A stretch of DNA of 64,000 nt, from NCBI GenBank assembly GCA_020248405.1, contig JADCHQ010000001.1, positions 1 through 64,000 of the forward strand, in the 5' to 3' direction. The position numbers and the translations under genes were made by a program. The stretch is from Rhodocyclaceae bacterium. GTDB taxonomy: Bacteria > Pseudomonadota > Gammaproteobacteria > Burkholderiales > Ga0077523. This document shows positions 6,001 through 20,833 of this stretch, piece after piece (positions within the stretch are counted from its first letter, which is position 1; each line of letters starts with the position of its first letter). A model generated the notes under the pieces. The model worked only from the letters and a program-made list of their open reading frames with translations. It made no database searches and had not been told where the DNA came from.

Positions 6001-9000
6001 CCAACTGGGGTTTGGAGGCCTACAGCTTCTGGGACATGGACACCAGCGGCCGCACCACCAGCGACGGCGGAGCGGGCAAGGCCACTCTCGAGATGAAAAA
6101 CCCCGCCACGTTTACCACCGCGGGGTGGAGCACCTCGGACTGGAACTTCGCGGTGGGCGCCTATCCGGTATTGCGACCATCAAGCGTGCCCTGCGTACGC
6201 GACGTGTGCTGGGATGGCGGCGCCGGCACGTTCAACTGGTTCGATGCGGCGAACTGGACAGGGAACGCACTGCCCACCGCGAGCCAAAGCATCTTCATCA
6301 ATGCCCTCGCCAACCCGGTGCTGTTCTCGGGTACCGGCTCCTACGCCAGCCTCGCCAGCGACGCCAGCTTCACCGTGGGAAGCGGCAGCGTCCTCACCTT
6401 CACCGGGGGCGTGAGCTTCAGCAGCGGCACCACCTTCACGATTCAAGGCGGAACGGTCAACTTCAACGCCGGCGGCAACACGCTGCACCATCTCGACATC
6501 GCCGCGGCCGGAAGGCTCAACCTGGCGGGCAGCACGACGCTCGGCGGCATGTCCACCATCAGTGGCGTCGTGGGCCTCTCCGGCACGCTCTTGCGCAATA
6601 CCGGAACGCTCGGTCTGATGAATGCCGGGTCATTTGAGTTGTCCGGTGCGTCGACCCTCGAGAACGCCGCTGCGGCAGTGATGACTCTGTCGGGCAGCAG
6701 CGCGCAGCCGGTGACCTATCTCGTTGCCCCCGCCGGCAAGTTGTTCCACAACGCCGGCGTGCTGAACAAGACATCCTCCACTGCGCAAACCATCGACGTG
6801 GCGTTCGAGAACGCCGCCGGCAGCACGCTGAATCTGACACTCGGCTCCCTGTCCCTGACGTCGTTCCCCACCAACTCGGGCCAGATTTCCATCGCCGCCG
6901 GCGCTACGCTCGGCTCGGGCGGCGCCGCCCTCCTCAATGCCGGCGGGGCCACCATCGCGGGGGCCGGAACCATGGATCTGGGCACCGCCATCCTCACCAA
7001 CAACGGCACGGTGCAGCCCGGCGGCGCCGGCACTGCGGGCACTCTCGACATCATCGGCAGCTACACCCAGGGCCCGGGCGGCACGCTGGTCATCGACCTG
7101 GGCGGCATGTCCCCTGGCCAATACGACAAGCTCAGCGTGCTGAACACCGCCACCCTCGACGGCACGCTGCAGACGGCATTCATCAATAGCTACACCGGCA
7201 ATGATGGTGACACCTTCACCCAGGTGGTGACGGCCTCCAGCGTCATCGGCACCTTCGCGGCCATCGACCCGCCACCGGGTTTCAGCATCTCCCCCACGCT
7301 TGGCCCCACGTTCTTCGACATGGCCTTGAATGCCCCGTGCCCGGCGGACGTGTGCTGGACCGGCGGCAGCGGGCTGTGGTCGACGGGCAGCAACTGGAGC
7401 ACGGGGCTCGCGCCCACCGTCGGTCAGCGCGTGCGGATCAGCCGGCCCGGCGACCTGACCATCACCGTCAGCAGCGGCACCCAGTACGCCACCGACCTGT
7501 TTTTGGAGGAGAACCTGGTGGTGAGCGCGGGCAGCCTCATCTTGGCGGGCGCGGCGGGCCTCACCGGGCCACTCACGCTGTCGGGCGGTAGTCTGGAATT
7601 GGCGGCCGGCGCGTCGGCCACGGCCAGCGCCCTTACGCTCTCGGGCGGCACGTTCCTGGCCAACGGCAACATCAGCACCGCGACGTTTGTTCTCTCCGGC
7701 AGCGGCGTGCTGGCTGGCGGCGGTGCGTTCTCGGTCACCAATGGCTTCAGCCAGAGCGGGGGCACCATCTCCCGCACCGGCAACCTGAACATTACCCAGG
7801 GCAGTGGCGTGCTCAACTTCAACAGCGCCACCGTGGGCGGCCTCGCTCTTGTGGCCAACAGCGGCGGGATTCAATTGGCCGGGACGATCATCGCCAGCGG
7901 CAACGTGGTCCTGACCGGCCAGGGCGTTGGCGCAGCAGAGCCAGGCGTGAGTCTGGTGGGCGCTCTCTCCACCACTGGCTCGGGCAGCATCCAGATCAAC
8001 GGGACCGCCGGCACCAGCGCCGCGGGCAGTGCGGGCGTCCACATCGATGGCTCGGTGCAGTCGGCCAATGGCAACATCAGCATTCAAGGCAACCGCGGCG
8101 CGGCATCGAGTGGCGATTTGCACGTGGGCGTTGCCCTGGACGGCGCCACGGTGAAAACCACCGGTGCTGGCAACATCTCCATCAGCGGCGGCGGAGCCGC
8201 GACCGGCGCCACCACCGACAACGTGGGCGTGCTGCTGTCGGGCTCCACGATCAGGGCCCTGGGTAGTGGCCGGGTAAGCCTTACGGGCACGGCGGCGGGC
8301 AACACCGCAGGCGGCAACTACGGTGTGAGCTTGCAGGCGGGCAGCGAGGTCAGCAGCGCTGCCGCGGTGTCTGATGCCGTTATGGTCAGCGGCGCGGGCG
8401 CCGCAGGCGATGCGGGCGTGCACCTCTCCGGAGCTGGCAACAACGTGCTGGCCACCGGCATGGGGGGCGGGGTGTCGCTGATCAGCACTGCCGGGGCCAT
8501 CGAGATCGGCGCCAGCGATGCGGTGAAGGCCCTGAACGGCGCGCTCAGCTTCAACAGCGTGGGCGGCTTGAACCAGGCAGCAGGCAGCAGCCTCATCGCC
8601 GGTACCGGCCTGACTTTGATGGGCGGTGGCCTGTTCAGCTTGAAGGGCTCCGGCAGCTTCGGCGGCACCATCGCCCTGGCGGGGCCGGACGTGCGCTTCC
8701 AGGGCGGCAGCCACAGCTTCGCCGATGGCGCGGTGGTGATCGGCACCCTCAACGTGGACGGCGCTGGAGTCCTGTTCGGCACCGGGAGCGTCGATGGCCT
8801 GGCGCTGAGCAGCGGGTCGGTCGCGGTTTCGGCCGCACGCACCCTTGTCGTGGCCAATCTGTCGCAGTCCGGCGGATTGATCGACGGCCCCGGCAGCCTC
8901 GACGTCACCAACAGCTACGCGCGCAGCGGCGGGGCCTTCGGCGGTGCCTGGGAGCGCGTCTCTATCCGCCAGGCGAGCGGCGACCTGGAGATCAATACCA

Positions 9001-9731
9001 ACCTCGCGGCGAGCCAGGTGAGCCTCACGGCTGCTGCCGGTGCGTTGCGGGTGCGCGATGCCATGGTGGTCGCCGCGGGCGACGCCAGCCTGAGCAGCGC
9101 TGCCTCCGCCAGCGTGCTGGCCAACGGCACGGCCACGGGCGTGAGCGGGGCCCGGGTGACGGTGAACATCGGTGGCAATCTCACCTTGCAGGGCGGTAGC
9201 GCCTCGGGGGCGAGTGCAAGCATTGAAGCTACCACCTTTGAATGCGGCGGCACCGTGGCGGGCGACTTGGTGCTCACCGGCGGGACTGGCGCCGGCGCCC
9301 ACGCCGTGCTTAGCGGTTTCGACATCGGACGGCCGAATCCGGGCGAATTCACGGTGCGCGGCAGCATCGCCATGAATCCCGGGACCAACGGCCACGCCCG
9401 CATCCAGTCCACCTCGCCCACCTCCATTCATCTGTCCCTGCCCAATCATTCCTCCGGGGGATACACCGTGGCGGGCAGCCCGGTGGTGAGCATGGGCCAG
9501 TCGGGTTTCTTCGCTGGCCCCAATGCGGCGGTGCTGGATCTAAATCTTCTGATTCGCTACGGGTTGGTTAACGCGTCGGCCGTCACAGCCACACCCGTGC
9601 TGGTGGAGATCAACAACCTCTCGGCGGGGACGACAGTGGTCAGCCCGTTTTCCGGACCGAAGCCGCGGCAGGATGCCGGCAACCAAGATGGTGATGATCC
9701 GGCCCAGCCTCCCCTGGGGAGGTGCCTGTGA
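2..9731 (+). CDS. Filamentous-haemagglutinin-like giant adhesin, 5'-truncated by window edge and frameshifted
   Basis: Large secreted surface protein of the two-partner/filamentous haemagglutinin type. The frame is open to the window's left edge, so the N-terminus (signal and secretion domain) lies outside. The visible start carries a typical haemagglutinin-domain phrase (APDGQVLLAAGSQVNLVD). The first frame runs to about 877; the remaining 2,946 codons are in another frame. Removing one T from the TTT at 877-879 restores a continuous reading (SGTPSDSLLTVAAL), so this is a one-base insertion, real or a sequencing error. The body holds many GLUG-type repeats (GGLVGxN, ATGSVxG) near nt 1530-1950, 2930-3470, 4440-5240 and 5650-6000. 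It also has four CWDGG modules, then a Gly/Ser/Thr-rich beta-helix-like stretch to about 9500. No C-terminal autotransporter barrel is visible. The stop overlaps the following FecR gene. Family call is firm; function as adhesin is inferred. Confidence 0.85.
1791..1799 (+). repeat. C9 homopolymer tract inside the adhesin gene
   Basis: Nine consecutive C residues follow TTTTTG directly, encoding the Pro run in FLPPPDRYVGG. The tract is in frame as sequenced. Tracts of this kind in surface protein genes are known slippage sites, but variation here is not shown. Confidence 0.9.
2133..7460 (+). repeat. Four dispersed CWDGG modules inside the adhesin gene
   Basis: Copies begin near 2133, 3660, 6201 and 7347. 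The first three encode DVCWDGGAGT followed by WFDAANWTG and, about 15 residues later, a short QSIFI phrase; copies two and three are nearly identical in DNA over long stretches. The fourth is divergent (DVCWTGGSGLWSTGSNWSTG). Each module ends one GLUG/beta-helix block and opens the next, so the protein looks built from repeated domains. Each contains one Cys near its start, rare elsewhere in the protein. Confidence 0.85.
4581..5864 (+). repeat. Diverged 642-bp tandem duplication inside the adhesin
   Basis: The unit starting with NSFY at 4581 recurs at 5223, exactly 642 nt (214 codons) later. Matching landmarks include NNGKTLNATT (around 4680 and 5320), PVGGYY, DLLGFATAG versus NLLGFATAG, LKFRLG and GFIGRI. 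Amino-acid similarity continues through the GLUG repeats to about 5864. The register is in frame, so the duplication lengthens the protein without breaking it. Confidence 0.8.
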
Positions 9732-15677: not shown

Positions 15678-16799
15678 GTGACGGCGCAGCAGCGGTGGGA
15701 CGTGTTCTGCCGCGTGGTGGACCATTTCGGCGACGTGGGGGTGTCCTGGCGGCTGGCGCGGCAACTGGCGGCAGAGCATCCGGTGAAGGTGCGCCTGTGG
15801 GTGGATGACCTGCACACCTTCCACCGGATCGAGGCTGCCGTGGACCCCTCGGTCCCGGTCCAGGCCGTGGGCGGCGTGGAGGTGCAGCGCTGGGACGATC
15901 TGGCGGAATTCAGCGCCCCTGCAGAGGTGGTGATCGAGGCCTTCGGCTCGCGTGTGCCGGCAGCGTATCTCGACGCCATGGCGGCCCAGCCGCGTGCGCC
16001 CGTCTGGATAAACCTGGAGTACCTCAGCGCCGAATCATGGGTGGAGGGTTGTCATGGCGTGGCCTCTCCTCATCCCACGCTGCCACTGGTGAAGCACTTC
16101 TTCTTCCCCGGATTCACTGCTGCCACGGGCGGGTTGCTGCGCGAGCGCCACCTGGAGTCGAGGCGCGTGGCCGAACTTGCGCAGCGCCCTGCGCGCGTGG
16201 GAGAAGTGTGCACCGTCTCGCTGTTCGGGTATGGCGGACCTGCGGTGGGCGGGCTGCTCGGCACCTGGGCCCATGGGAATCAGCCCATGCTGGCGCTGGT
16301 GCCCGAAAGCCGTCTGCTGGCCGACGTGGCCTCGTTCCTGGGACGGGACGCACTCGGCCCGGGAGATCGCGAGCAGCGCGGCGCGTTGACAGTGCTGGTA
16401 CTGCCTTTCCAGGATCAGGACGGCTACGACCGGCTGCTGTGGCGCTGCGACTGTAACTTCGTGCGCGGAGAGGATTCGTTCATGCGCGCCCAATGGGCAC
16501 GGCGGCCGCTCGTGTGGAACATCTACGCGCAGGAGGGTGGTGCCCACTGGGCGAAGCTACACGCCTTCCAGACCCGTTATTCTGAAACGCTGGACGAAGA
16601 GACGGCGGCGGCGCTTCGGGAGTTCTGGCGGCTGTGGAACCTCTCCAGTCCATCGCCCACCGCCCTGGCTACTGGCTGGCACCGCTTCTGGGCCTGCCGC
16701 GAGGCGCTGGCCCTGCACGCCGAGCGCTGGGCGGCCGCATTGCAGGCGCAGACTGATCTCACCACCAATCTGGTGACTTTCGCTCGCGAACGCCTATAA
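15678..16799 (+). CDS. earP: EF-P arginine rhamnosyltransferase EarP
   Basis: 373 residues from GTG 15678. EarP transfers rhamnose from dTDP-rhamnose to Arg32 of elongation factor P. Family signatures are visible: WDVFCRVVDHFGDVGVSWRL at the N-terminus, WVDDLHTF, VWINLEYLSAESWVEGCHG, LPFQDQDGYDRLLW and the nucleotide-sugar site region RGEDSFMRAQWA. Its substrate gene efp lies 90 bp downstream on the same strand, the standard arrangement, and that EF-P carries Arg at position 32. Confidence 0.95.
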   Translation: MTAQQRWDVFCRVVDHFGDVGVSWRLARQLAAEHPVKVRLWVDDLHTFHRIEAAVDPSVPVQAVGGVEVQRWDDLAEFSAPAEVVIEAFGSRVPAAYLDAMAAQPRAPVWINLEYLSAESWVEGCHGVASPHPTLPLVKHFFFPGFTAATGGLLRERHLESRRVAELAQRPARVGEVCTVSLFGYGGPAVGGLLGTWAHGNQPMLALVPESRLLADVASFLGRDALGPGDREQRGALTVLVLPFQDQDGYDRLLWRCDCNFVRGEDSFMRAQWARRPLVWNIYAQEGGAHWAKLHAFQTRYSETLDEETAAALREFWRLWNLSSPSPTALATGWHRFWACREALALHAERWAAALQAQTDLTTNLVTFARERL

Positions 16800-16889: not shown

Positions 16890-17450
16890 ATGAAGATCGC
16901 CCAGGAACTGCGCGTCGGAAACGTCGTCATGGTCGGCAAGGACCCTCTAGTGGTGCAGAAGGCCGAATTCAACAAGTCAGGCCGCAACGCTTCCGTCATG
17001 AAGATGAAGTTCAAGAACCTGCTCACGGGCGCCACCAGCGAGGCTGTCTATCGCGCCGACGAGAAATTCGAAGTGGTGTTGCTGGAGCGCAAGGAGGCCA
17101 GTTACTCGTACTTCGCCGACCCCATGTACGTTTTCATGGATGCCGATTACAACCAGTACGAGGTGGAAAAGGACAACATGGGCGACGCGCTCAACTATCT
17201 CGAAGATGCCATGCCGGTAGAACTGGTGTTCTACGATGGCCGGCCCATCTCCCTGGCGATGCCCAACTCGGTGGTCCGAGAAATCACCTACACCGAGCCG
17301 GCAGTGCGCGGTGATACCTCGGGCAAGGTGCTCAAACCCGCCAAGCTCTCCACGGGCTTCGAAGTGCAGGTGCCCCTCTTCTGTGCCACGGGCGACCGGA
17401 TCGAGATTGACACGACCTCGGGCGAGTACCGCCGCCGGGTCACGGCCTGA
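16890..17450 (+). CDS. efp: Translation elongation factor P
   Basis: 186 residues, the usual EF-P length. It binds ribosomes stalled at consecutive prolines and promotes peptide bond formation. The modification loop reads [10 protein letters not shown], with Arg as residue 32, the residue rhamnosylated by EarP. The C-terminal domains include [27 protein letters not shown] and end with GEYRRRVTA. Convergent with the broken gene downstream, whose stop begins one base after the efp stop. Confidence 0.97.
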
Positions 17451-19066
17451 TTAGGCACGAGCCGCCAGCGCGAGCAGCGGCTCGAGCACGTCGAGCTGCA
17501 TCACCCAATGGTGGGGCAGGCCCCCCACGCCGCGGGCCGCACCGCGCAGCTGGCCCGCCAAAGAGGCCGTGGAGTCGGAGTCGCCGTCGTGGTTGGCGGC
17601 GATCCGCAGGGCGTGGGTGAAATCGTCACCCGCCAGCGCCGCCGGCAGGCCCATGGCCAGCGCCTCCTCAGCCACCCATCGGCCTCCCAGAAGGGCTACG
17701 CGTTTTTCCTCCTCGACAGGGCCAGGCGCCCGTTGGGCTGCCAGGGCAATTGCCTGATCCATCAGCCGACCGGTGAGCGGCGCTGCCGCTTGCCAGACGG
17801 TGGCCTGATGGCGTGCCGGTATCAGCGCTTGGCGCAACAGCGCCACCTCGGACGCGGCATCGGCAGCGTGGTCGGCCTCGAACAACGACTGCACCAGGCC
17901 AGCCATGACGGCACAGGCGGCGCCGGACTCTGGATGGACATGGGTGATGGCGCCGGCCTCGGCGGCCAGTAAAGCGCGGGATGGAACCGCTGCACCACCC
18001 GCGGTGCCGAACCCGTCAAAGCCAATAGGCGCCGAGCGCATGACGGCCCCGCAGCCCTTGCTGTCCTTGGCGAGACGGCCCAGGGTGCCCCGCCTGCCAT
18101 CGGCCATGGCCTTTAGACAAGTGAGCCCAGGCGCCCGGCACGCCTGCAACTCTGGCACCAGGGCAAGCATGCCGTGGGGCGCGAAGGGCCAGCGAGCGGC
18201 CGGCCCGGGCTGCTAGGTGAGCCACCAGTCGAGGTAGGCCTCCTGCAGGAAAGGGCGCGCATCCGTGGCCCCGGCTTCGCGGGCGCGGACCAGCCCCTCG
18301 AGGGTGGACAGGGTCATCTGCGTGTCGTCGGAAACCACCAGGCGCCCCGCCCGCAGCACGGGCTCGCGCAGGCCATCGGCACCGTGGCGGGCGCGGATGG
18401 ATTCGAGGGAGTCGAATTCGACGACGTAACCAAAGGCATCGCCCAGGGCGCCACCCAGAAGGCACCCCAACACCCGCGACTGGCGCAGCAGGGCAATTGA
18501 CGGTACGGGGCGGCAAGCGGCGAGGTGTGCACGCTGCGCCTCAGTTTCCACCGCGCCCGGGCGCGCCGCATGGACGGTTTGCACAGCTTGCGTTGGTGAC
18601 AATCCGCCAAATTCCACCAGCATCCGGGCCGCCACCGTCCCAGCACGCCCGAGACCGCCCTTGCAGTGCACCACCACCGAGCGCCCCGCTCTCAGGTGAT
18701 GTAGCAGGCGCAGACGCACCCAGGGCCATGCCTGTTCGAAGGCCTGCCCGGCGCCTCGCCGTCGGAAATGGGCGCGTGGTGCCATTCAATACCCCGTGCC
18801 GAGAGCGCTGCGCCCAGCGCCGGCACGCCGAGCGCCAGCAACTCCTCACCCGTGACAAGGGACAACACGGCGGCTGCACCCCAGTCGCACAGGGCGTCGG
18901 CGTCCGTTTCAAGGTCTCGCGCCCAGCGGGCGAACAGCGCATCGGGCCGGCTCTTTCCCGGGGACAGGGTGAGCCCCAGTCGTCCCGCTCCACCCGGCCA
19001 GGGCAGGGAATCCACTCTCAGAGGATCGCTGCTTCTGGTACGCAACCTGGCGGTATGGTTTTCCAT
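17451..19066 (-). pseudogene. Broken fusion: dual-specificity phosphatase + ADP-ribosylglycohydrolase
   Basis: Three open segments give one fused protein. The N-terminal segment starts at ATG 19066 and includes DALCDWGAAAVLSLVTGEEL and IEWHHAPISDGEAPG. A frame change near 18747-18752 (one base missing in a CCCGG stretch) leads into the phosphatase active site VVHCKGGLGRAGT. This continues into an ADP-ribosylglycohydrolase domain (GCLLGGALGDAFGY, SDDTQMTLSTLEG). An in-frame TAG at 18213-18215, one step from a Gln codon, interrupts it after YLDWWLT. The same frame resumes with PELQACRAPGLTCL, IGFDGFGTAGG and ends with the metal-binding DGDSDSTASL motif. Cys-Arg phosphatase and DraG-type metal residues are all still present, so decay is recent or the lesions are sequencing errors. 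If intact, it would remove phosphate and ADP-ribose groups. Confidence 0.8.
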
Positions 19067-19493
19067 GGCGGATTCAGCCTCGCTCGCGAACGGCGCGAGG
19101 CGTGGCCGCGCCACCCCTGGGCAAAGGGGCCGCCAGAGGGCCGTGTACCAGCGCAGCGTCGTTGCTCGCGCCCACGAGGACGCCGCGAAGCCTGGCCGTG
19201 CTGCCGACGCCGTTCTCCCCGAGTTTGCGGCGCAACCACGTGGGCACATCGAAATTCACACTGCCGTCGGAGCGACGGCCTGGCGCCCTGCCGGCGCCGG
19301 CGCCAGTGGTTCGGGAATGCTGCACAACCGGCGCCGTTGACCACCGCAGCTTGACCGATTCGACGGACGGAGGCAGGACCAGGCAAGGCGGGGGCAATCG
19401 GAACATGGCTGTGACTCACGCGAAACCCGCGGTTGCGGGCGTGATGGCCATGATGAGGGAGGCACAGGCTCAGGAGATGAGCCCGCCGAACAC
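19067..19493. other. 427-bp gap between the broken fusion gene and the WYL regulator
   Basis: No gene is firmly supported. A minus-strand frame at 19074-19406 ends 7 nt before the fusion gene start and contains a plausible stretch (SVNFDVPTWLRRKLGENGVG, TARLRGVLVGASNDAALVHG), but its first half is Arg/Pro-rich and no ribosome binding site is seen. It may be a small gene or remnant. No repeat or hairpin stood out. Confidence 0.35.
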
Positions 19494-20474
19494 TCAGTGC
19501 GCAGGCGGGTCGCCCAGGTAACCCGCCGCGGCGCGCGCCAGCTCCTCGGCCACCGCGTGGCGCAGCGCCGGGGGGTGGAGCACCTCCACTTCGGCACCAT
19601 GGCGCAACACATCCATGAGGAGCTCGCGGTGATCGCTGTAGGGCAATTCGAGAATCCAGCCGCCGTCGGGCTGGGATTCACCCCGCTGGGCGGGATGCCA
19701 CTGCTCCCGAGCCACCCAACGCGCCCGGGCCGGCGAAAAACGCAGCCTGGCCCACTGCACGTCCGCGCCACTGAAGATGCCGTAGCCACTGGCCAGCACG
19801 GCGTCGAGCACGTCCTCGGGCATTTCGCGGGCCGCGCCTTCCAGGGTGTGCACCGATTCGAGGGCATCCACGGCAAAGCTGCGCAGCCCTTCGCGGAGGT
19901 GGCACCAGGCATCCAGGTACCAGTTGTCGCGGTAGTGCACCAGACGCTGGGGCGAAACCTCGCGCTCCGTGCGGGAATTCGTGGCCCGGTTGTGGTGCAG
20001 GATGCGAATGCGGCGACGCTGCAGCACTGCTGCAGCCACGGCGTCGAACTGCCGCGCCCCGGTGAGGCGACGTGCCTGGTGCAGGATGCGGACACGGTGG
20101 CGCACCGCCTCGGCGTCGTGCCCGCGGCTGCCAAGCAGTTTCTGCAGGCGCGAGGCGAGAGGCCGCAGGTGCGCCTCGAGCACACCAGAGCCCAGGCTGG
20201 CCAGCAGATGTTCCAGCGTGAGGAGGGCGTGGGCCTCCGCATCGCTGAACCACAATCCCGGCAGTTCCGAACGGCCCTCGACCACCTCCAGGCGATAGCC
20301 CCCGGCCTGACGGTCCCACGTGATGGGCACGTTCATGCGGCTTCGCAGATACTCCACGTCGCGCTTCAAGGTGGCGACCGAGACCTCCAGTTCCTGGCGG
20401 AATGTCTGGCTCGAAACCACTCTGCGGGCGTGCAGAAGCTGCGTCATGCGATAAAATCTTTCAGTGCGATCCAT
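19494..20474 (-). CDS. YafY-type transcriptional regulator, HTH + WYL domain
   Basis: 326 residues. The N-terminus starts in the family style (MDRTERFYRMTQLLHARR) with a DeoR-like helix-turn-helix (VSSQTFRQELEVSVATLKRD). The centre and C-terminus form a WYL domain, with VSPQRLVHYRDNWYLDAWCH and the following strand-rich region, then a WCX-like tail (ELPYSDHRELLMDVLRHG). WYL regulators bind ligands or nucleic acid and often control stress, phage defence or metabolic genes. The neighbours do not reveal its target. The small membrane-protein ORF starts 116 bp away on the opposite strand, so the intervening region could be an operator site. Confidence 0.9.
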   Translation of the reverse strand: MDRTERFYRMTQLLHARRVVSSQTFRQELEVSVATLKRDVEYLRSRMNVPITWDRQAGGYRLEVVEGRSELPGLWFSDAEAHALLTLEHLLASLGSGVLEAHLRPLASRLQKLLGSRGHDAEAVRHRVRILHQARRLTGARQFDAVAAAVLQRRRIRILHHNRATNSRTEREVSPQRLVHYRDNWYLDAWCHLREGLRSFAVDALESVHTLEGAAREMPEDVLDAVLASGYGIFSGADVQWARLRFSPARARWVAREQWHPAQRGESQPDGGWILELPYSDHRELLMDVLRHGAEVEVLHPPALRHAVAEELARAAAGYLGDPPAH

Positions 20475-20589
20475 TCGGTTTTTCGATGGGTTGCGGTGGC
20501 GGGTCCACCTTGGAGTTTTTCATCATGACAGCCGCTTTCAGAGGGTGCTCCACGTGGCGAGAGCGGCATTTTCAGGGGGGAGATCTAGC

Positions 20590-20670
20590 ATGTCGATTCT
20601 GGATATGTCGTTGGTGAGTGGCTTCATCTTGCTGGTTGTGCTAATCGTCATTCGTACCAAACAGCGGTAG
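20590..20670 (+). CDS. Candidate 26-residue single-pass membrane peptide
   Basis: ATG 20590 is preceded by GGGGGGAGATCTAGC, a strong purine-rich ribosome binding site at suitable distance. The peptide begins MSILDMSLVSG, has a hydrophobic core of about 13 residues (FILLVVLIVI) and ends RTKQR. The basic tail predicts the C-terminus in the cytoplasm. No homologue is recognised. It lies between the divergent WYL regulator and a lipoprotein gene. Support is the ribosome site and the membrane-peptide pattern only. Confidence 0.5.
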   Translation: MSILDMSLVSGFILLVVLIVIRTKQR

Positions 20671-20833
20671 CAATGCACCGGTCGACGCGAGGGGCACGCT
20701 CCCTCCTCTGCTTGCGGCCAGTTGTAGCCGGCGTTCGCGGTCTACCCCAAGATCTCCGCAAGGAACCATCTTCTGTGGGCGACTCTCCATGTAGTCACTG
20801 GGCACGTCGCCCCAACTCCCTGGAGATCCAGCC

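What the first reader, a model, noticed from the sequence alone, without database searches (positions are those of the whole stretch)
17451..19066. Phosphatase fused to ADP-ribosylglycohydrolase, broken twice
A Cys-Arg phosphatase and a DraG-type hydrolase lie in one reading unit, suggesting an enzyme that reverses two modifications, or acts on ADP-ribose phosphates. A frame change near 18750 and an amber codon at 18213 break it, while all catalytic residues remain.
Basis: partly seen in the sequence, partly recalled or inferred. Interest (0 to 1): 0.6.

Follow-up and report, generated by a model that had tools for sequence, protein, structure and literature searches.

The report
Decayed phosphatase–ADP-ribose hydrolase fusion gene
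A bacterial gene joins a cysteine phosphatase to an ADP-ribose-removing enzyme, an enzyme type already predicted to fight viral protein tagging; intact copies occur in other bacteria, but this copy is probably a dying pseudogene, so the finding is largely ordinary.

Summary
On the minus strand, 19066-17451, a CDKN3/DSP-like Cys-x5-Arg phosphatase runs into a DraG-fold ADP-ribosylglycohydrolase (ARG). The frame changes at about 18743-18749 and a TAG sits at 18215-18213. The catalytic motifs of both domains remain.

I found eleven other fusions with both domains in one frame, in proteobacterial MAGs, Rhodobacterales plasmids and viral-collection contigs. The linker is short.

The fusion type is not new. 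Iyer et al. 2022 (PMC9503650, section 3.8) describe ARG systems with a rhodanese-superfamily phosphatase in the same polypeptide, often with a WYL regulator and sometimes nuclease/helicase effectors, predicted to reverse virus-made ADP-ribosylation.

This copy is most likely a pseudogene. Flanking vertical genes are unbroken. Its ARG branch is 1.47 changes/site against a median of 0.3. It breaks 12 of 80 otherwise invariant columns. None of 11 same-genus genomes has it. It sits in a variable slot between efp and a WYL gene inherited independently of it.

New details: the window's clade includes a conserved fusion–HIT/ATP-adenylyltransferase-like gene pair (five loci). Rhodobacterales fusions sit in an AAA–WYL–fusion–PD-(D/E)XK/UvrD–helicase operon.

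The parts
18743..19066 (-). N-terminal part of the phosphatase domain (first ATG at 19066; includes the candidate acid Asp in IxD), frame -1
   Evidence: aligns with residues 3-96 of intact fusion L018 at 49% identity
18743..18749 (-). frame change inside the phosphatase domain
   Evidence: the two HSPs abut at residue 96 of L018; same place with L023 and L116
18213..18749 (-). C-terminal part of the phosphatase (HCKGGLGR) and N-terminal ARG (VEF, SDDTQM), frame -3
18213..18215 (-). in-frame TAG in the ARG domain, where intact relatives have a sense codon in a conserved segment
17451..18212 (-). rest of the ARG domain (TH motif, GDSDST metal motif) to the stop
19494..20474 (-). intact HTH-WYL-WCX transcription regulator upstream on the same strand, 427 bp from the fusion's ATG; orthologous to WYL genes of same-genus genomes
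16890..17450 (+). efp (elongation factor P), convergent and abutting; marks the vertical flank of the slot
15678..16799 (+). earP (EF-P rhamnosyltransferase), vertical flank

Best explanation
The window holds a decaying, patchily distributed copy of a known enzyme type: an N-terminal rhodanese-superfamily (DSP/CDKN3-like) cysteine phosphatase joined by a short linker to a DraG/ARH-type ADP-ribosylglycohydrolase. In intact relatives the ARG domain most likely uses its two-metal site to cut ADP-ribose from modified macromolecules (or a related ADP-ribose derivative). The phosphatase, through a phosphocysteine intermediate, most likely strips a phosphate from the released or phosphorylated ADP-ribose product. 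WYL and nuclease/helicase neighbours on plasmids suggest a conflict (anti-phage) role there. Shown here: architecture, catalytic motifs, intact relatives, neighbours, two lesions, long branch, patchy presence. Inferred: substrate, order of reactions, defence role, and that the window copy makes no full-length active enzyme.
For: Domains and motifs. Intact single-frame fusions: L018-L023, L024-L026, L098, L115 and L116; L114 is also fused but runs to the ends of its fetched stretch. Published prediction for ARG plus rhodanese-phosphatase plus WYL systems: PMC9503650 section 3.8. Defence-like operon AAA-WYL-fusion-PDDEXK-UvrD-unknown-unknown-helicase in L025/L026, and the same without PDDEXK/UvrD in L115. 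Pseudogene: two lesions in one gene while seven flanking genes align without lesion; ARG branch 1.47 against a median of 0.3; 68 of 80 otherwise invariant columns kept; absent from 11 same-genus genomes; only ARG in its genome.
Against: Catalytic residues of both domains persist, so decay is recent or partial. No reads were available to exclude assembly error. The phosphatase-domain branch (0.82) is not flagged as an outlier. The drop in conserved columns is not far beyond the other long-branch members (L116 68/75, L018 68/74). No biochemistry exists for the fusion itself in anything I found.
Confidence: 0.72

Rival explanations
1. The gene is intact and working; both lesions are assembly or sequencing errors.
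For: All catalytic motifs are kept, and codon-position GC is still gene-like in both frames.
Against: Two independent lesions in one gene, with none in seven flanking homologous genes. A very long ARG branch cannot come from two errors.
Confidence: 0.15
2. Programmed frameshifting and stop readthrough produce the full protein.
For: Both reading frames keep coding character.
Against: The complete fusions reach across the same region in a single frame with no stop, and by inspection I saw no obvious slippery heptamer at 18743-18749. Two recoding events would be needed.
Confidence: 0.03
3. The broken pieces still work separately, for example an ARG-only product started internally after the TAG or a phosphatase fragment.
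For: Stand-alone ARG and stand-alone phosphatase relatives exist in the order.
Against: The frame change splits the phosphatase before its Cys motif, and the TAG separates the VEF/SDDTQM metal residues from the TH/GDSDST half of the ARG site, so no single fragment holds a full active site.
Confidence: 0.04
4. It is the nitrogenase regulator DraG with an accessory phosphatase.
For: Best NCBIfam hit is dinitro_DRAG. In Rhodobacter sp. CZR27 a stand-alone relative of the phosphatase lies next to draG-draT.
Against: Score 64 against a cut-off of 337. No DraT match in the genome (although that control rang nowhere).
Confidence: 0.03
5. The fusion is a housekeeping enzyme that repairs ADP-ribose or dinucleotide by-products, not a defence enzyme. 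(This concerns what intact relatives do, so it can hold alongside the pseudogene reading.)
For: In the window's own clade, five loci pair it with a HIT/ATP-adenylyltransferase-like gene; in four of these metH lies upstream (my reading of the ORF translations).
Against: Other members lie on plasmids in nuclease/helicase operons or near a TOTE-conflict primase. Presence is patchy: of 399 genomes of the order, only the window's genome and G294 showed both domains at one place.
Confidence: 0.3

Closest known systems
ARG-centric systems with rhodanese-superfamily phosphatase (Iyer et al. 2022, PMC9503650, section 3.8 / Fig. 7)
   Same: ARG domain coupled to a Cys phosphatase in one polypeptide, no linked ADP-ribosyltransferase found, WYL regulator next door, nuclease/helicase modules in relatives
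   Different: The window copy is broken, has only a WYL neighbour of independent origin, and no effector or chaperone genes; the HIT/ATP-adenylyltransferase partner of its sister clade is not mentioned in that paper's text
DraG / TIGR02662 ADP-ribosyl-[dinitrogen reductase] hydrolase
   Same: Same fold and metal/TH/GDSDST motifs
   Different: Far below the family cut-off (64 against 337), extra phosphatase domain, no DraT found
Human ARH3 / ARH1
   Same: Best structural matches of the modelled ARG half of intact relative L018
   Different: 18-24% identity; single-domain enzymes
CDKN3/KAP and bacterial DSP-type phosphatases (PF05706, PF22784, PF22785)
   Same: H-C-x5-R loop and acid Asp; profile matches chain 1fpz (CDKN3, E = 1.3e-18)
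   Different: Fused to ARG, and here split by a frame change

Membership tests
ARG-centric phosphatase-coupled system (Iyer et al. 2022) | ARG (PF03747) domain | tested here: met
   E 2e-53 to 5e-53, about 181-182 bits against cut-off 26.2
ARG-centric phosphatase-coupled system (Iyer et al. 2022) | rhodanese-superfamily Cys phosphatase in the same polypeptide or adjacent gene | tested here: met
   PTP-SAK/DSPc/Y_phosphatase hits (plus CDKN3 in intact relatives) with HCx5R; same reading unit in intact relatives
ARG-centric phosphatase-coupled system (Iyer et al. 2022) | WYL or Nudix one-component regulator of the operon (over 42% of systems) | tested here: inconclusive
   A WYL regulator is adjacent, but it is orthologous to same-genus WYL genes beside other cargo (61-64% identity) and only 22-29% identical to the WYLs near plasmid fusion/ARG genes
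ARG-centric phosphatase-coupled system (Iyer et al. 2022) | no coupled ADP-ribosyltransferase or sirtuin | tested here: inconclusive
   No DraT hit in the genome, but no control genome rang; other transferase and sirtuin families not searched
ARG-centric phosphatase-coupled system (Iyer et al. 2022) | intact reading frame | tested here: not met
   frame change and TAG in the window; relatives intact
ARG-centric phosphatase-coupled system (Iyer et al. 2022) | removal of ADP-ribose in phage defence | not testable with these tools
DraG (TIGR02662) | equivalog score cut-off 337.05 | tested here: not met
   64.2 bits
Tri1 ADP-ribosylarginine hydrolase (NF041672) | equivalog score cut-off 490 | tested here: not met
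   51.4 bits
DSP/PTP phosphatase superfamily | H-C-x5-R active-site loop and acid Asp | tested here: met
   HCKGGLGR and ISD retained, in two different frames

The most novel reading that the evidence does not exclude
In the betaproteobacterial clade nearest to the window gene, the fusion and the adjacent HIT/ATP-adenylyltransferase-like enzyme form a dedicated three-activity route (glycohydrolase, phosphatase, nucleotidyl phosphorylase or transferase). It would clear a phosphorylated ADP-ribose or dinucleotide signal, a metabolic or alarmone role different from the published anti-viral one.
Probability: 0.15. Interest if true: 0.45.

Novelty: new member of a known kind. Interest (0 to 1): 0.22.

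Why it matters
It adds a well-documented set of intact phosphatase–ARG fusions, with exact loci, to a predicted but untested anti-ADP-ribosylation system. It shows the two domains in one chain with a short linker, a recurring HIT/ATP-adenylyltransferase partner, and a Rhodobacterales AAA-WYL-fusion-nuclease/helicase operon that could be assayed. The window copy itself matters little: it documents loss of such a gene.

Tried and rejected
(1) Two separate genes: rejected, because complete relatives read through both domains in one frame.
(2) WYL next to the fusion as proof of an operon: weakened. The WYL is a vertical gene of the genus and sits beside a different gene, or none, in relatives.
(3) One fusion origin: the ARG tree needs at least two changes for the fusion label and the phosphatase tree is unresolved. 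One ancient fusion with later losses, or two fusions, are both possible.
(4) PADLOC named no defence system for the fusion, the HEPN-annotated protein or the PD-(D/E)XK protein.
(5) No E. coli genome carries the L116 fusion, and no phage record of the annotated collection covers at least 80% of the query.
(6) The HIT partner gave no match in the window's genome; no positive control was run.
(7) Literature searches for the two-domain enzyme outside PMC9503650 gave nothing.

Full report
WHAT IS THERE. The gene lies on the minus strand between a convergent efp (16890-17450) and an upstream WYL regulator (19494-20474, minus). Read from 19066, the first frame gives the N-terminal part of a DSP-like phosphatase up to ...PISDGEAP. 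At about 18743-18749 the frame changes. The second frame gives the phosphatase active-site loop HCKGGLGR, a short linker and a complete-length ADP-ribosylglycohydrolase domain, interrupted by TAG at 18215-18213 and ending at 17451. Pfam finds PF03747 (E 4.7e-53) and PTP-SAK PF22784 (E 2.9e-8) above their cut-offs.

INTACT RELATIVES. L018 and L019 (two copies in one Magnetospirillum MAG) and L020-L023 (betaproteobacterial MAGs) encode both domains in one frame. So do plasmid loci L024 (Cereibacter), L025 (Leisingera) and L026 (Fuscovulum), genome locus L098 in the same order, and IMG/VR contigs L115 and L116. L114 is also fused but is incomplete in the stretch fetched. Pairwise identity to the window is about 36-46%. 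The phosphatase matches end near residue 178 and the ARG matches start near residue 183 of L018, so the linker is short. An AlphaFold2 model of L018 (pTM 0.82, mean pLDDT 77, six sequences only) gives a single two-domain protein. Its ARG half matches ARH3, ARH1 and DraG structures. By sequence the profile matches CDKN3, bacterial PTPs and DraG chains.

IS THE WINDOW COPY A PSEUDOGENE? Seven genes of same-genus genomes from this neighbourhood align to the window without lesion, whereas the fusion has two. In the ARG tree the window's end branch is 1.47 changes per site against a median of 0.3, the only one flagged as long. It keeps 68 of 80 columns that are invariant in the others, although two of the 12 losses are the stop itself and a boundary position. 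The next-lowest complete sequences keep 68 of 75 and 68 of 74. The phosphatase branch (0.82) is not flagged. Eleven same-genus genomes show no orthologue, and PF03747 occurs once in this genome. The slot between efp and the downstream lipoprotein/glyoxalase genes is variable. By my reading of the ORFs, it holds a transporter in G002, an alcohol dehydrogenase in G003, apt in G007/G008 and little in G001. I conclude an acquired gene in decay (about 0.8), with assembly error as the main rival (about 0.15). Loss of both active sites as complete units follows from the lesion positions; it was not measured.

NEIGHBOURS AND FUNCTION. Rhodobacterales members sit in an operon AAA-WYL-fusion, followed in L025/L026 by PD-(D/E)XK and UvrD genes, then two unnamed proteins (the second looks phospholipase-D-like to me, with no Pfam hit) and a ResIII/SNF2-type helicase. 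L115 keeps the same order without the PD-(D/E)XK/UvrD pair. L018 lies beside a TOTE-conflict primase and an N6/N4 methylase. In L020-L023 and L098 the fusion is followed directly by a HIT/ATP-adenylyltransferase-like gene (PF01230 E 8.4e-5 in L021; PF09830 E 1.8e-4, just under its cut-off, in L098). This last group is the closest clade to the window gene, with moderate support of 92/82 and a long branch. The window has only a WYL neighbour. That WYL is 61-64% identical to same-genus WYLs that lie near other cargo and 22-29% identical to the WYLs near the plasmid fusion/ARG genes, so its pairing with the fusion may be coincidental.

MECHANISM. From family knowledge, the ARG fold uses two divalent metals held by the SDDT and GDSDS aspartates to cleave the ADP-ribose glycosidic bond. 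The Cys phosphatase transfers phosphate to its cysteine and releases it with help from the acid Asp. Fusion argues for acting on one substrate in sequence, or on the product of one by the other. Iyer et al. 2022 make that argument and propose removal of virus-made ADP-ribosylation with WYL/Nudix de-repression (PMC9503650 section 3.8). The step order and substrate are inferred. The HIT-linked clade leaves room for a metabolic reading.

KNOWN OR NEW. The fused architecture, the WYL association and the effector modules are all in PMC9503650. The HIT partner is not mentioned in its main text; figures and supplements were not read. TIGR02662 and Tri1 memberships fail their cut-offs. The finding is a broken new member of a known kind.

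LIMITS. No reads, no proteomics, no activity data. DraT absence is uncontrolled, as is HIT absence. Trees have long branches. The full text searched is open-access only.

Noticed in passing
L020:3823-4890, L021:3827-4930, L022:2747-3859, L023:3646-4731, L098:5460-6530: HIT/ATP-adenylyltransferase-like gene directly downstream of the intact fusion in five loci, in four of them with a metH-like gene upstream; a conserved pair not mentioned in PMC9503650's main text.
   Followed up: partly
L025:8574-24646, L026:8534-25092, L115:2867-13286: Conserved AAA-WYL-fusion-(PD-(D/E)XK-UvrD)-unknown-unknown-helicase operon on Rhodobacterales plasmids and a viral-collection contig, with no whole-system match in PADLOC; a candidate defence system.
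   Followed up: partly
L028:9710-10210 (Rhodobacter sp. CZR27): Unannotated stand-alone relative of the phosphatase domain next to draG-draT.
   Followed up: no
L018 and L019 (Magnetospirillum MAG): Two fusion copies (88% identical) in duplicated mobile regions with a ParB-N6/N4-methylase gene; one copy is next to a TOTE primase.
   Followed up: no
L030:9225-10210 (G058): A lone ARG relative that matches in two separate open frames and so looks frame-broken too, in a different family of the order.
   Followed up: no
L116:5989-8046 and 8917-9432: A longer fusion (685 aa) near what looks like a T6SS Tlde1-type (DUF2778) effector gene; probably a bacterial island in the viral collection rather than a phage.
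   Followed up: no
window 17451-20833: The interval downstream of efp is a variable cargo slot in this genus: transporter, alcohol dehydrogenase, apt or nothing in relatives.
   Followed up: partly
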